Shown one piece after another: positions 14,564 to 20,671 of a DNA stretch of 21,568 bases; position 1 is the stretch's first letter, and the number at the start of each line of letters is the position of its first letter. The notes under the pieces are model-generated. The model was not told the DNA's origin, did not search any database, and was given only the letters and a program-made list of their open reading frames with translations. This DNA comes from a virus, in the IMG/VR virus record IMGVR_UViG_3300006916_000470, positions 1 to 21,568 of that record. The stretch is one strand, 5' to 3'. Position numbers and translations under genes: made by a program.

Positions 14564-16582
14564 TTATTCACTTGTTATTCTAAAATGACAGCTTATATCA
14601 TCATCATCATTTGGTAAATGTGCTATCACTTTTGCGTTTGCTGATTTTACATTATATGTTAATCCATCTATATAACAACTCTGTGGGTCTTGTGCAATAG
14701 AAGTACCAAAATTAAACCATATTCTATTATGCATGCTTACAGGGTCGTTTTCCATATTTCTAAATGTCCCTTCATATCTTACTAAAAACTCTCTATAATC
14801 ATTCATAATGTTTTGTAAATGTCTATGAAACATTGGTTTTACAACAGTATCTCTTGATCTTTTATATGCATATAGTGTAGGTATACCGTTTCCAGTGCTA
14901 AAATAATATGTGCCTGTTATTATTTTTTGGTCACTATAAACGTTGGTTGCAGAAGTTCTTTTTGCAAATTCTATGTATGAACTAGGAATTTGTCTATTAT
15001 CGTTTGGCGCAGCAGCAAGACCAGATGGTTTAAAATAATTACCAATAATACCAACATTATCAAAATAAATTTCTTGAATACCTGAACCTGAATAAGTACA
15101 GTTTAAAACTTGTACACCTATTTGAATACCAGTAAAATTAGTTGGATAACCAGTACCATCAAAACTAATTGATATAGTTTGCCAATTATTAAAAACTTCG
15201 ACTGTTCTAGTAATTGTAGTTTCTGTTGTAGTCCAGGTGCTGTTTTCATCGTCCCAATAATGAAAGTTTGGTGATCTACTAGCAACAATTCTGACTTGTA
15301 CAGTAAAAGATAAAACACTGTTTTCGTCTTTTTCAGCAAATACACCAAATTGTGCTGTTGTTCCAGTAAAGTAATAATTCCAAGATTTTGCAGTTTGACC
15401 AGCATAATCAGAATTAAAAACTAATGTTTCACCACTCGTAGGTGCGTTAACAAATTTAATTGCTTTACGCCCTTGTTGTGAAAAATCATCAGTTACTAAA
15501 CTTGCATAACTAGATAGAACCCAACCATAACTACCATATTCAAATCCAATATTTCTTGTAAATTCATATATGTTATTTTGTGTCGTTGTAAATTTATATC
15601 TAGCTTCATTAATTGGTTGTATGTATTCTCTGACTAAATCACCACCTACATTTTTTAAATTTGTTGGAACTACTTTTAAAACAGATTGATTGCTGTTTGA
15701 CTGATAAACACCAGAAGAATTGTAAATGTCAGTTTGTATTACTTCATCATTAGCGCTAACTAATTGTGATGTTATGCTTGCCTGTATGCCTGTTGGCGTT
15801 GTTCCGCCAGTTGCAGAACTAAATATTGTAGATTTTACATTAGCATCAAAAATATTAGAATTTTCTACAATATACCAACGTCCATAAGATTGAAATATAC
15901 GACAATTGTAATTTTTCAAAATTGCTTCTAATTGTTTTTTACAAGTAGGTAAATCAAATTTATTTATAAGTTCATTACGACCATTGGTAATTAAAGATTC
16001 TTGCATAACTTCTTTACGCATTGGATATGTAGGCGTTCCAAATGTTGTTGTCCATAAATCTGCCTGAACATATATCTCTAATCCTAAATTAAGGTTAGCA
16101 AGTATTGTAGCAATTCTAGTTCTATTAGCTAATCCAGTAGCTTCGTTAAAAGGATTTGTTCCTATTGGTGCATCATAATTATCTAAAGTACCAAGACCAT
16201 CATATGCGTTTAAACTAAATCCAACTGGATTAGCTTTATATTCTTCTTTGAATCTATCAACAACAAGCCAGCCAATCCAATAAGTCCTATAAACGTTAGA
16301 ACTATCTTTATAAGATATTTTTACTTTATATTCTCTTTCATCATGTTCATAAAAATCATCATAACTAACAGTGTCAGTAGTAAATAAATTTAGTGTACAT
16401 ACAGAACCAATAATTGGTGAATTGTATGGGTCATCATTAGCATTCCATTTTATTACGACTGGTTCAGCTTGCCCAACCATTGGCAAAACACTACCTGTAT
16501 AACCATCTTTCCAAATTTCTATTTTTTTACCTTTGGTTAAGACATCACTAAATTCTAATCTATATTTAACACCGTATGCCAT
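14564..16582 (-). CDS. Tail-tip / receptor-binding protein with carbohydrate-binding-like domain
   Basis: Comes directly after the tape measure with a one-base overlap (TAATG), the place of distal tail and receptor-binding proteins. The first about 150 residues ('RLEFSDVLTKGKKIEIWKDG', 'YKDSSNVYRTYWIGWLVVDR') look like a distal-tail-type beta domain. In the middle, about residues 343-508, a jelly-roll module starts with 'NIGFEYGSYGW' and ends with 'EIYFDNVGI', the edges typical of carbohydrate-binding modules of the CBM4/9 kind; inside is a Trp/Tyr-rich part ('NFHYWDDENSTWT'). The C-terminal 160 residues return to a tail-like mixed fold. Binding of a cell-surface sugar polymer is a reasonable inference. 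I cannot name a close relative. Confidence 0.7.
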   Translation of the reverse strand: MAYGVKYRLEFSDVLTKGKKIEIWKDGYTGSVLPMVGQAEPVVIKWNANDDPYNSPIIGSVCTLNLFTTDTVSYDDFYEHDEREYKVKISYKDSSNVYRTYWIGWLVVDRFKEEYKANPVGFSLNAYDGLGTLDNYDAPIGTNPFNEATGLANRTRIATILANLNLGLEIYVQADLWTTTFGTPTYPMRKEVMQESLITNGRNELINKFDLPTCKKQLEAILKNYNCRIFQSYGRWYIVENSNIFDANVKSTIFSSATGGTTPTGIQASITSQLVSANDEVIQTDIYNSSGVYQSNSNQSVLKVVPTNLKNVGGDLVREYIQPINEARYKFTTTQNNIYEFTRNIGFEYGSYGWVLSSYASLVTDDFSQQGRKAIKFVNAPTSGETLVFNSDYAGQTAKSWNYYFTGTTAQFGVFAEKDENSVLSFTVQVRIVASRSPNFHYWDDENSTWTTTETTITRTVEVFNNWQTISISFDGTGYPTNFTGIQIGVQVLNCTYSGSGIQEIYFDNVGIIGNYFKPSGLAAAPNDNRQIPSSYIEFAKRTSATNVYSDQKIITGTYYFSTGNGIPTLYAYKRSRDTVVKPMFHRHLQNIMNDYREFLVRYEGTFRNMENDPVSMHNRIWFNFGTSIAQDPQSCYIDGLTYNVKSANAKVIAHLPNDDDDISCHFRITSE

Positions 16583-18987
16583 TAAATTAATCTGTTACGT
16601 GTACTGTTTGCTCTTTCAAGTGCAACCACTAAATCTTGTCCTTTAATCTCAAATGAACCGCCAACTTGTACTTGTTGAACGCCACCTGTATTACCTATCA
16701 TATTTTTTAATTTATCTAATGGCGCAATAACTTCAGGATTGCTTCTCGCACCAGGATATTCACCCATTAAACCTAAAGTTGGTGCGCTTACAATACCACC
16801 TTTTGCAAAAGCTGCTGGTTTTTGTTGTGCAATTTTTTGTGATTGACTACTTGCAAATTTACCTAAAGCAACAAGCGCAATACCAGCGGCAATAGCAACA
16901 GCTGGATTTAAAGATTCTAATGCTTTTTTTATACCTTTTACACCTAAACCTATATGAATTGCTAATTTACCCATTTGTGTCGCCATTTGACCTAATGAAC
17001 CTAATAAAACACTGCTTAAACTTTTGGCTAAATTACCACCGCCACTAATTGCTGCGCCTAATGCTTCACCAATACCAACAGCCATATTGTTTAATCCTTC
17101 AGTCATTATACCGCCTAATTCTTGGTTAAATGCTTTTGCATTAGCTATCATTTGATCTTGTTTTTCCATCAATGATTTTTGTGCGTCAGTTAGTTGTGTT
17201 ACAACGGGATTTTCACCACCACCACCACCAGCGTCACTTACAGTTGGTGCTTCAACAGAACCACCACCGCCACCAGAAAACATGTTACCTAGTAAATTAG
17301 TTCCAAAACCTTTAAACTTTTCAACCACATTGTCTAAACTTCCTTGAACTTGGTCAACTGTTTTATGTTCTAACTGACTTGATAATGCTTTTATATAACT
17401 ATCAGTAAAATCGTCTGCTATTTTTTCACCAGCTTTATCAGATATTTTTTCTGCTTCTTCAAAACCTTCTTCTAAAATGTCACCAAAAGAACCTTTTATG
17501 CCTTTTTCAGAAAATTCTTTAATTAGTTTCCATAGTGTTTTAAATGTGTTAACAAATTGATCAACATAAGACCTTATTTTAGTAAATACTGCTCTAAAAC
17601 TTGCGCCAACACCAGCAATAATAACACGAAGCAAAACAGATGAATTATATAAATCGACAAATCTATTGTATAAACCAACAACAACTGGTAACACTTCACC
17701 CCAGTTTTTATATATAACATAAGCAACAGCTGCTAATCCAGCGGCAATTAAACCTATTGGTGACATTAACAAACTTAAAGCAGTTGTTAATCCACCTACC
17801 AAAGTTATTATAGTTGGTAATGCAACTGCAATACCGCCAAATGCTAGTATTAATTTTTGTGTTGTTGGATTTAATTCTCTAAACCTATTATATAAATTTT
17901 TTATAAAGCCAACAGCTTTTTGTATTGCTGGCACAACTGCAACTAATAATTGTTGACCTAAACTAGTTAAAGTTTCTTTTGCGCCATTTAATGCTTTTTG
18001 AAATTGAAAACTTGCTGACTTTGACGTTATATCAAATGCTTTAGCAGTTGCACCAGCGCTATTTGATAACTCATCAAAAATTTCTTTAGCATCTTCCATA
18101 CCAGCACCAGTCAAATCTAAAACTCCTTTTAACGCTCTTATGTTAGGAAATATACTTGAAATGTCAACACCAAACTCTTGTGTTCTGTTTTTTAACATTT
18201 CTAATGTAGCCATTAAACCATCTTCAGCTAAACTTTGCTGAACTTGGTCTGTACTCATACCCATGTTAGATAATGCTTGAACAGCTTGATCAGTTGGTTT
18301 TTTTAATGATGCTAATATTGCTGTTAGTTGTGTTGCGCCTGTTGCAGCGTTTGTACCTGTTCTGGACATAGCAGCCATCGCAGCACCTACCTCGTGAAAC
18401 TCAACACCCATATTTGATGCAATTGGTATAACACCACCCATTGCGCCAGCTAGTTCACTAGATTCTAGTTTACCTTCACGAACAGCTGCCGTTAAAACAT
18501 CTGTTGCAGCGGTTGCATTTAATGTATCAGAACCATAAGCATTCATTGCAGATGTTGCTAGATCAGCAATTGTTTTAGTTTCACCTAAACCTGACGCAGC
18601 TGCTTTCGTTGCTATTTCTAATGCTTCCATTGAATTTTTAGCATCAAGACCAGCAGAAGTTATAAAGAATAAAGCGTCACCAGCTTCTTGACTTGAAACA
18701 CCAGTTTCTAATGCCATTTTTTTTGCATGTTGACCAAGTTTGTCAACTTCAGCAGCAGACATTCCTACAAGCGCTTTTATTTTAGTCATTGACTTATCAA
18801 AGTCCAATGCCATTTTTACACCAGCGCCACCAATTAAACCCATTGGAATTGCAATAGCTTGTAAAGAACTTCCTAGTCCTTTTAACTTACTTCCAAAAGA
18901 TTTTAGTTTACCTTGTGCGCTAGACATTGCTTTATTCAAGCCACTAGCATCACCATTAATTTTTACTTTAAGTGGTTGTGTTGCCAT
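16582..18987 (-). CDS. Tape measure protein (TP901 family)
   Basis: Sets tail length and passes through the tail into the host. The N-terminal half (about 50-330) has the TP901 core pattern: repeated Ala/Gly/Met helices such as 'ALFFITSAGLDAKNSMEAL', 'AVREGKLESSELAGAMGGVI' and 'AMAAMSRTGTNAATGATQL'. A hydrophobic block of about 50 residues at 379-429 ('LILAFGGIAVALPTIITLVG' and 'GLIAAGLAAVAYVIY') probably contains two membrane segments. Further on is a Gly-rich stretch (about 560-590). At about 1.5 Å per residue the 801 residues predict a tail near 120 nm, a siphovirus length. A TAnnTTTG box lies just upstream, and the tail-assembly chaperone gene lies upstream as always. Confidence 0.93.
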   Translation of the reverse strand: MATQPLKVKINGDASGLNKAMSSAQGKLKSFGSKLKGLGSSLQAIAIPMGLIGGAGVKMALDFDKSMTKIKALVGMSAAEVDKLGQHAKKMALETGVSSQEAGDALFFITSAGLDAKNSMEALEIATKAAASGLGETKTIADLATSAMNAYGSDTLNATAATDVLTAAVREGKLESSELAGAMGGVIPIASNMGVEFHEVGAAMAAMSRTGTNAATGATQLTAILASLKKPTDQAVQALSNMGMSTDQVQQSLAEDGLMATLEMLKNRTQEFGVDISSIFPNIRALKGVLDLTGAGMEDAKEIFDELSNSAGATAKAFDITSKSASFQFQKALNGAKETLTSLGQQLLVAVVPAIQKAVGFIKNLYNRFRELNPTTQKLILAFGGIAVALPTIITLVGGLTTALSLLMSPIGLIAAGLAAVAYVIYKNWGEVLPVVVGLYNRFVDLYNSSVLLRVIIAGVGASFRAVFTKIRSYVDQFVNTFKTLWKLIKEFSEKGIKGSFGDILEEGFEEAEKISDKAGEKIADDFTDSYIKALSSQLEHKTVDQVQGSLDNVVEKFKGFGTNLLGNMFSGGGGGSVEAPTVSDAGGGGGENPVVTQLTDAQKSLMEKQDQMIANAKAFNQELGGIMTEGLNNMAVGIGEALGAAISGGGNLAKSLSSVLLGSLGQMATQMGKLAIHIGLGVKGIKKALESLNPAVAIAAGIALVALGKFASSQSQKIAQQKPAAFAKGGIVSAPTLGLMGEYPGARSNPEVIAPLDKLKNMIGNTGGVQQVQVGGSFEIKGQDLVVALERANSTRNRLI

Positions 18988-19025: not shown

Positions 19026-19732
19026 TTATTTTTTCTTGCTAATACCTTTAACTTTAGCAGCAAATTTTTCGTATTGTTCACGTGTAGATTTTGGTTTACC
19101 ACGTTCTAAATAAACGTCTTGTGGTAATGGAAAAAGTTTGTCTGGTGTTATCATATTTGCACGTTTATCAACATTAATATTAAATAACATCATAGCAATA
19201 TAACGTGTGCGTTCCCATTCTAAATTTTGTTTGATTTGATACGATTCGCCAAGCAGTTGATTTTCCTTCCAGGTATTTGTCCAAAAGTCATTTGGCGTAA
19301 TTCCAACTTGTCCAATGTAATAATCAAATAAGTCGTCCCAACTTATGGACTTTTTTACTTTCCCTTTTTTGTGGTTTTAGTAACTGTTCTTTTTATTCCA
19401 ACATTAAGATCGTTGCCAAGAATTTTAGATTCCATCATTGCCGAAACTATATCTTCTATTTTTTCTGCTGGCATTTCATCTAACCATGAACCAACTGTAT
19501 AAACATTATAATCTATTTCATTGTTGTTTTCTTGGTCAAATGCCAAAAGCGCTGAATATATCAGCGCTCTAATTGTTGACAGATTAATTCCTTGTTGAAA
19601 TATTTCACCAATCTTATCAATTGGTATTTCTAGTAAATCGGTAAAGTTCGTCCAAAAATTCATTGAAAAATGCATGGTACGATTTTTACCCCCCAATTTT
19701 ATTGAGTAATAACCCCTTTTCCTGTTTGCCAT
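19026..19732 (-). CDS. Tail-assembly chaperone GT fusion made by -1 frameshift
   Basis: The T frame has no start codon of its own near its beginning (first codons after a stop are GGG AAA GTA) but is open for 112 codons. It is in the -1 frame of the upstream gene and joined at the slippery heptamer at 19370-19364. A shift after residue 123 of the G gene gives a 235-residue fusion. The T part reads 'KSISWDDLFDYYIGQVGITP', 'DFWTNTWKENQLLGES' and 'YEKFAAKVKGISKKK', with Trp/Tyr-rich helices. Position (directly before the tape measure) matches gpG/gpGT of lambda, where the fusion guides tail assembly. Slippery heptamer, frame and gene context agree, so I consider it firm despite no RNA data. Confidence 0.88.
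19355..19732 (-). CDS. Tail-assembly chaperone G (zero-frame product)
   Basis: The unshifted, more abundant product. The 125 residues are helical ('MHFSMNFWTNFTDLLEIPID', 'STIRALIYSALLAFDQ', 'PAEKIEDIVSAMMESKI') with a basic tail, as in small phage tail chaperones. They lie between the tail-tube gene and the tape measure gene. The stop is only six bases after the slippery heptamer. Chaperones of this type coat the tape measure protein while tube subunits assemble. The G/T pair is therefore a complete functional set. Confidence 0.85.
   Translation of the reverse strand: MANRKRGYYSIKLGGKNRTMHFSMNFWTNFTDLLEIPIDKIGEIFQQGINLSTIRALIYSALLAFDQENNNEIDYNVYTVGSWLDEMPAEKIEDIVSAMMESKILGNDLNVGIKRTVTKTTKKGK
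19364..19370 (-). promoter_or_regulatory. Programmed -1 frameshift site (A AAA AAG)
   Basis: In the G frame the minus strand reads ACA AAA AAG GGA AAG TAA; A AAA AAG is the heptamer used in E. coli dnaX and many phages. A modest hairpin (GTCC / GGAC, 19350-19347 and 19338-19335) begins 13 bases downstream. The stimulating structure is weak; the heptamer and open -1 frame are the strong evidence. Confidence 0.85.
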
Positions 19733-19743
19733 TTTTTTAACTA

Positions 19744-20151
19744 TTAATTAGTAGATTTTGCAATGCTGCCAGTTAATGTAATTGAACCTGAATAACTTAC
19801 TGGTGATTCCATTTCAGCAGATTGCTCTAGTGAACTTAAAAATCCTTCAGCAGTATAAACAGCATCACCTGTTTCAGCTGTTCCAAAAACACATGTTAAT
19901 TGTGTTCTAGCTAAAAGGTAATCTGCCATTTCAATTGCATTGGCTGCATCACTATAATCAACTAAACCTTCAAAAGATATTTCACCACTAATAACACCAG
20001 CAATAACTTCTTGGAATCCGCTAGAATCCTTTGTTGTAGCTTCTGGCAAGTCATTAGACAATGTAAGTGAACAACTAGTAGTGTGTCCTAGTGTTGCTGT
20101 TTCAATCTTTAGAATTAAATTAGTTCCATTAAAAACTGATGTTGTAGCCAT
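19744..20151 (-). CDS. Tail tube protein 1 (TP901-1 type major tail protein)
   Basis: The protein whose rings form the inner tube of the tail. The signature is 'LGHTTSCSLTLSNDLPEATT' followed by 'KDSSGFQEVIAGVISGEISF' and 'EGLVDYSDAANA', the beta-sandwich pattern of the TP901-1/phage tail tube family. It aligns over nearly its whole length with the gene directly upstream (20204-20671). At 135 residues it is small but within the range for tube proteins. It has its own promoter-like element in the 52-base gap (20184-20211), with TTG and TATATTTG 17 bases apart, the best of the tail module. Position just before the chaperone genes is usual, so this is the more likely main tube subunit. Confidence 0.85.
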   Translation of the reverse strand: MATTSVFNGTNLILKIETATLGHTTSCSLTLSNDLPEATTKDSSGFQEVIAGVISGEISFEGLVDYSDAANAIEMADYLLARTQLTCVFGTAETGDAVYTAEGFLSSLEQSAEMESPVSYSGSITLTGSIAKSTN

Positions 20152-20183: not shown

Positions 20184-20211
20184 CAAATATACAATTTTTT
20201 TAATTAAGCAA
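20184..20211 (-). promoter_or_regulatory. Promoter before tail tube gene 1
   Basis: Minus strand TTG (20211-20209), 17 bases, TATATTTG (20191-20184). Both boxes match the Bacteroidota consensus. The ATG follows 32 bases later. Confidence 0.55.
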
Positions 20212-20671
20212 CTTGCCATTCAAAGTTGGCGTTTTCCCATAAAACATCAGTTGTATTCCAGTATCGATCAGTCCCTTCTTGTTGTATGCTAAACAATCCA
20301 GTCAATTGTATTTCAACGTCAAAAGTTACAGCGGTTTCAGATTCAGCTGTTTCTTCAACGTTTAATAAAATACCGTTTCCTATTAATAATAAACCATCAA
20401 ATGCTGATTGTTCAAAAACAAATTCACTTTGCTGACGTGTTAATACCATGTCAGCTAATTGTTCAAAATTTAAAGTATCGGAATAATCTGTAAGACCAGA
20501 AACTGATATTGTGCCTGATCTTACACCAGCAATGACTTGCTTAAACCCAGCTGATTCTTTAGTGGTGGATTCAGGCAAGTCAACGCTTAATGAGAATTTA
20601 GTTTGTGTGGAATGTCCAAGTATATTGCCGTCATGGAACAAACCAAAAGATGTTCCATTTATTAACGCCAT
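20204..20671 (-). CDS. Tail tube protein 2, paralogue of the next gene
   Basis: Matches its downstream neighbour along the shared core: 'LGHSTQTKFSLSVDLPESTT' versus 'LGHTTSCSLTLSNDLPEATT', and 'KESAGFKQVIAGVRSGTISV' versus 'KDSSGFQEVIAGVISGEISF', then 'GLTDYSD' versus 'GLVDYSD'. About 30 extra C-terminal residues (Trp-rich, 'YWNTTDVLWENANFEWQVA') are absent in the neighbour. A tandem tail-tube pair can give a main and a minor subunit, or one copy may act as a tail terminator-side or decoration variant; both are inference. It is coupled to the upstream gene by TAATG. Confidence 0.8.
   Translation of the reverse strand: MALINGTSFGLFHDGNILGHSTQTKFSLSVDLPESTTKESAGFKQVIAGVRSGTISVSGLTDYSDTLNFEQLADMVLTRQQSEFVFEQSAFDGLLLIGNGILLNVEETAESETAVTFDVEIQLTGLFSIQQEGTDRYWNTTDVLWENANFEWQVA

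What the first reader, a model, noticed from the sequence alone, without database searches (positions are those of the whole stretch)
19026..19732. Programmed -1 frameshift in the tail-assembly chaperone, including a T frame that starts-based gene calling misses
The minus-strand G gene contains ACA AAA AAG GGA AAG TAA, a dnaX-type slippery heptamer (A AAA AAG at 19370-19364) two codons before its stop. The -1 frame then stays open for 112 codons up to the tape measure gene and has no start codon of its own near its beginning. Seen directly: heptamer, frame, length. Known: lambda-like gpG/gpGT. Inferred: the 235-residue fusion. Without it 330 bases would be called empty.
Basis: partly seen in the sequence, partly recalled or inferred. 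Interest (0 to 1): 0.75.

Follow-up and report, generated by a model that had tools for sequence, protein, structure and literature searches.

The report
Lambda-type frameshift in tail chaperone
This phage makes its short and long tail-assembly chaperones from one gene by a -1 ribosomal frameshift, as phage lambda does; the feature is real and conserved but of a known kind, and the conserved slip site is lambda's own GGGAAAG, not the A-rich heptamer first proposed.

Summary
The G gene (19355-19732, minus) and an open, start-less -1 frame (T, to 19026) lie between a tail-tube gene and the tape measure, as described. The frameshift is strongly supported by comparison. In all 94 distinct G-T regions found (143 fetched sequences), T lies in the -1 frame of G. 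T evolves as a protein in that frame, and none has ATG/GTG/TTG ahead of T's conserved start. The G fold matches annotated tail-assembly chaperones, and T matches the frame between chaperone and tape measure in Cellulophaga phage phi39:1.

The slip site needs correcting. In all 70 the codons are GGA-AAG although each is used about 15% of the time elsewhere, and the preceding codon, for eight different amino acids, always ends in G. Lambda has the same heptamer in the same frame. Both sites would give the same 235-residue fusion. The other 24 use A AAA AAA or A AAA AAC. Verdict: a real, ordinary member of the lambda G/GT kind.

The parts
19355..19732 (-). G: 125-residue tail assembly chaperone, zero-frame product
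   Evidence: PHROG 2115 'tail protein' E 4.6e-6; AlphaFold model (pLDDT 80) matches BFVD proteins named tail assembly chaperone
19026..19364 (-). T: -1 frame, 112 codons plus stop, no start codon near its beginning; C-terminal part of the fusion
   Evidence: PHROG 16333 E 1.6e-7; substitutions concentrated at third codon positions of this frame; -1 relative to G in all relatives
19358..19364 (-). G GGA AAG: conserved slippery heptamer, most likely the slip site
   Evidence: 70/94 distinct loci; 70/70 codon-level conservation, and same heptamer and frame in lambda G; only in-frame copy in the window's genes
19364..19370 (-).
   Evidence: 21/94 loci, always with G GGA AAG; three changes on the tree; broken in L005, L011, L028, L037
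19355..19357 (-). zero-frame TAA stop, directly after the heptamer
16582..18987 (-). tail length tape measure protein, directly downstream of T
   Evidence: PHROG 991 E 5.2e-71, Pfam PhageMin_Tail E 4.8e-26
19744..20151 (-). tail tube (major tail) protein, directly upstream of G
   Evidence: PHROG 1407 E 7.7e-24; Pfam PF06199 E 2.8e-11

Best explanation
The locus encodes a lambda-type tail assembly chaperone pair. Most ribosomes stop at TAA and make G (125 residues). A minority, with tRNA-Gly and tRNA-Lys on G GGA AAG (19364-19358), slip back one base to GGG AAA and read on through T, making a 235-residue G-T fusion. By analogy with lambda, many G and few GT would coat the tape measure, with T recruiting the tail-tube protein. 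Shown by comparison: conserved frame relation, coding selection on T, nucleotide-level conservation of the heptamer, tail context, chaperone fold of G. Inferred: that slippage is ribosomal, its efficiency, and the assembly role.
For: T is -1 to G in every relative, with no in-frame fusions (143 sequences, 94 distinct). Every one of the 94 has an X XXY YYZ heptamer in the required frame and space; 70 have G GGA AAG. In these the codons are always GGA and AAG, against GGA 143/960 of Gly and AAG 98/661 of Lys codons elsewhere in G; the codon before is AAG, AGG, GTG, CAG, ACG, TCG, GCG or GAG, always ending in G. Other conserved Gly columns in G show 0.97-1.82 bits of codon variation. In L011, L028 and L037 the -1 frame opens only one codon ahead of G GGA AAG, leaving no other listed heptamer. 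T-frame differences against the window fall on codon positions 1/2/3 as 6/7/33 (L010) and 6/4/31 (L012). None of 94 has ATG/GTG/TTG before T's conserved Trp. Lambda G has GCG GGA AAG in the same frame; G_GGA_AAG is highly shift-prone in E. coli and is the g-t site of haloarchaeal virus HCTV-5 (PMC5009743). A distant relative, L153, also has G GGA AAG in frame with T at -1.
Against: No direct evidence of either product. No conserved downstream RNA structure (two invariant pairs, -0.18 kcal/mol), and the window's own fold is not unusual (z -1.1 to -1.9); whether lambda has a downstream stimulator was not looked up. G and T show no sequence similarity to lambda gpG or gpT. The T model is of low confidence (pLDDT 65). 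The loci are related, so 70/70 is not 70 independent observations.
Confidence: 0.88

Rival explanations
1. The ribosome slips mainly at the reader's A AAA AAG (19370-19364), with G GGA AAG incidental.
For: A AAA AAG is a known strong site in E. coli (PMC5009743); it is in frame in 21/94 loci, including most close relatives; it gives the same fusion.
Against: Broken in L005, L011, L028, L037 with T intact; never found without G GGA AAG; 4.6% likely by codon choice alone; three changes on the tree while G GGA AAG persists.
Confidence: 0.08
2. Both overlapping heptamers are used in this phage, A AAA AAG adding to a core G GGA AAG site and raising the GT:G ratio. This is a variant of the best explanation, not exclusive of it.
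For: Three phased overlapping heptamers (A AAA AAG, A AAG GGA, G GGA AAG) lie in a row with one common product; the arrangement also occurs in the separate lineages L015-L027 and L071/L074.
Against: No measurement; the A-rich site is poorly conserved and cheap to gain in an AT-rich, Lys-rich tail.
Confidence: 0.3
3. T is a separate gene, started by re-initiation after the G stop from a non-standard codon.
For: T directly follows the G stop; 43 of 94 loci have some CTG/ATT/ATC/ATA codon before the conserved Trp.
Against: None of 94 has ATG/GTG/TTG there and 51 lack even the weak starts; the slippery heptamers and -1 phase would be unexplained.
Confidence: 0.03
4. The frame break is a sequencing or assembly error and G-T is one ordinary gene, or T is a decayed remnant.
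For: The junction is A-rich.
Against: The same -1 break in 94 distinct regions from many assemblies; T under coding selection.
Confidence: 0.01

Closest known systems
Phage lambda gpG / gpGT tail assembly chaperones
   Same: Same gene order (tail tube, G, T in -1 frame, tape measure) and the same heptamer G GGA AAG in the same frame near the end of G.
   Different: No detectable sequence similarity of G or T; here the stop directly follows the heptamer, whereas lambda G runs on for several codons; T has no start of its own, whereas in lambda T is annotated as a CDS from a position in the overlap.
Haloarchaeal viruses HCTV-1, -2, -5 g-t frameshifting (PMC5009743)
   Same: -1 frameshift; [quoted passage not shown]
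   Different: Hosts are archaea; sequence relation not tested.
Cellulophaga phage phi39:1 gp19 and gp20 (L150), and contig L153
   Same: Chaperone-sized gene then T-like frame before the tape measure; T matches with hhalign E 3.5e-5 and shares PHROG 16333; L153 has G GGA AAG with T at -1.
   Different: In phi39:1 itself T lies in the +1 (or -2) frame after an A8 run and is annotated from an internal Met as a shorter gene.

Membership tests
lambda-type G/GT frameshifted tail assembly chaperone | Two overlapping frames between the tail tube and tape measure genes | tested here: met
lambda-type G/GT frameshifted tail assembly chaperone | Second frame at -1, conserved among relatives | tested here: met
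   All 143 sequences, 94 distinct
lambda-type G/GT frameshifted tail assembly chaperone | In-frame X XXY YYZ slippery heptamer in the overlap, conserved at nucleotide level | tested here: met
   94/94 loci have one; G GGA AAG in 70, invariant at codon level
lambda-type G/GT frameshifted tail assembly chaperone | G has the tail assembly chaperone fold | tested here: met
   BFVD match A0A8S5M2L5, named tail assembly chaperone, E 5.3e-4, TM 0.63-0.66; N15 gpGT only E 0.083; nothing significant in the PDB. Support rests on predicted structures with annotated names.
lambda-type G/GT frameshifted tail assembly chaperone | Sequence homology to lambda gpG and gpT | tested here: not met
   not a defining feature, since the frameshift is conserved despite low sequence similarity (PMC5009743)
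lambda-type G/GT frameshifted tail assembly chaperone | Both products made, the fusion at a few percent | not testable with these tools
   Needs protein data
   21/94 loci; broken in L005, L011, L028, L037
   Window fold z -1.1 to -1.9; no conserved structure in 32 relatives

The most novel reading that the evidence does not exclude
Within this one phage family the way of making GT has changed: a widespread G GGA AAG ribosomal site gave way in one nested clade to a run of nine A (C AAA AAA AAA C), where RNA polymerase slippage could replace ribosomal slippage, and the window's lineage has stacked a second overlapping heptamer on the old one.
Probability: 0.2. Interest if true: 0.45.

Novelty: new member of a known kind. 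Interest (0 to 1): 0.27.

Why it matters
It gives an uncultured phage family a correct tail-chaperone annotation, restores about 110 codons that a start-based caller loses or cuts to a 55-residue fragment, and provides 94 natural variants showing which slippery heptamer selection keeps. PHROG 16333 seems to be built from T proteins cut at an internal Met (its first position matches residue 26, a Met, of the phi39:1 frame), so the same truncation is present in reference data.

Tried and rejected
Close relatives among 50,697 cultured phage records: none for G or T. Sequence homology to lambda gpG and gpT: none. PDB fold match for G: none significant. Pfam for G and T: no confident family; DUF5484 and Phage_TAC_11 only weakly in some G members. 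Conserved downstream stem-loop: none. Bacteroidota-type promoter count as a host clue: 4 found, 3.4 expected, so not used; the host stays unresolved. Sequencing error and separate initiation of T: rejected. The T model was too poor to search by fold. In one search the row for L028 is out of register because of an indel and is not used.

Full report
Observation. The minus strand reads ACC ACA AAA AAG GGA AAG TAA at the end of a 125-codon gene, G (19732-19355). A AAA AAG lies in frame at 19370-19364. The -1 frame is open for 112 codons to a stop at 19028-19026, close before the tape measure gene at 18987. No ATG/GTG/TTG ORF of 60 residues or more covers it.

The missed site. The next two codons form a second in-frame heptamer, G GGA AAG (19364-19358), sharing one G with the first and directly followed by the stop. 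Slippage at either gives the same protein (...TKKGKVKKSISWDD...), so the 235-residue fusion stands whichever is used. A AAA AAG is cheap in this sequence: three genes of the window have one in frame, and 4.6% of synonymous recodings of the junction give it. G GGA AAG is in frame once in the window's genes and arises in 0.34% of recodings.

Relatives. Scans of IMG/VR with T and G gave 146 loci; some are one contig fetched by both scans. In all 143 sequences carrying both parts (the window among them), T is -1 to G; none is fused in frame. Removing identical sequences leaves 94 distinct G-T regions. In these last three the -1 frame opens only one codon before G GGA AAG, leaving no room for another site.

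Selection on the heptamer. Choosing the loci by protein (a Gly-Lys near the end of G) rather than by DNA, all 70 use GGA and AAG, against 143/960 GGA and 98/661 AAG elsewhere in the same genes. The preceding codon encodes eight different amino acids yet always ends in G, a base found at 13% of third positions. Other conserved Gly columns vary by 0.97-1.82 bits. The loci are related, so these counts are not independent trials, but the pattern of free amino acid and fixed third base is hard to explain without selection on the nucleotide sequence itself.

T is a protein, and has no start. Differences from the window fall on codon positions 1/2/3 of the T frame as 6/7/33 in L010 and 6/4/31 in L012. 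None of 94 loci has ATG, GTG or TTG before the conserved Trp, and 51 lack even CTG/ATT/ATC/ATA.

Identity. G matches PHROG 2115 (tail protein, E 4.6e-6). Its AlphaFold model (pLDDT 80) matches viral proteins named tail assembly chaperone (best so named: E 5.3e-4, TM 0.63-0.66). T matches PHROG 16333 (E 1.6e-7) and the frame between chaperone and tape measure of Cellulophaga phage phi39:1 (hhalign E 3.5e-5; local score 100 against a shuffled mean of 27.7). The neighbours are a tail-tube protein upstream and a tape measure downstream.

Mechanism. Best supported: -1 ribosomal slippage at G GGA AAG making a minority G-T fusion. Lambda G has the same heptamer in the same frame. The review PMC5009743 lists G_GGA_AAG, and A_AAG after A_AA, as highly shift-prone in E. 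[quoted passage not shown] No conserved downstream structure was found. Ribosomal slippage, its level and the assembly role are inferred.

Standing. A real and conserved feature, a new member of the lambda G/GT kind, with the slip site corrected. G and T have no detectable sequence similarity to lambda's, as the review says is common for this gene pair. Interest is modest.

Noticed in passing
L150:1785-2511 (Cellulophaga phage phi39:1): The T frame lies +1 (or -2) relative to gp19, after a run of eight A, while the relative L153 has T at -1 with G GGA AAG. It could be -2 or +1 frameshifting, polymerase slippage, or an error in the A run.
   Followed up: partly
21 distinct loci, e.g. L059, L092, L095, L112, L132, L137: A clade with C AAA AAA AAA C at the junction in place of G GGA AAG; a nine-A run could also act by transcriptional slippage.
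   Followed up: partly
19744-20151 and 20204-20671: Two adjacent genes both match tail tube families (PHROG 1407, Pfam PF06199), a possible duplicated tail-tube protein.
   Followed up: no
L148 (PBPJ01000031.1): A 35.8 kb contig filed under a Woesearchaeota metagenome-assembled genome carries a close relative of this T (92%); probably a phage contig binned with the wrong organism.
   Followed up: no
PHROG 16333, against L150:2146-2508: The profile begins at an internal Met of the phi39:1 T frame (its residue 26), so the reference family appears to be built from truncated T genes.
   Followed up: partly
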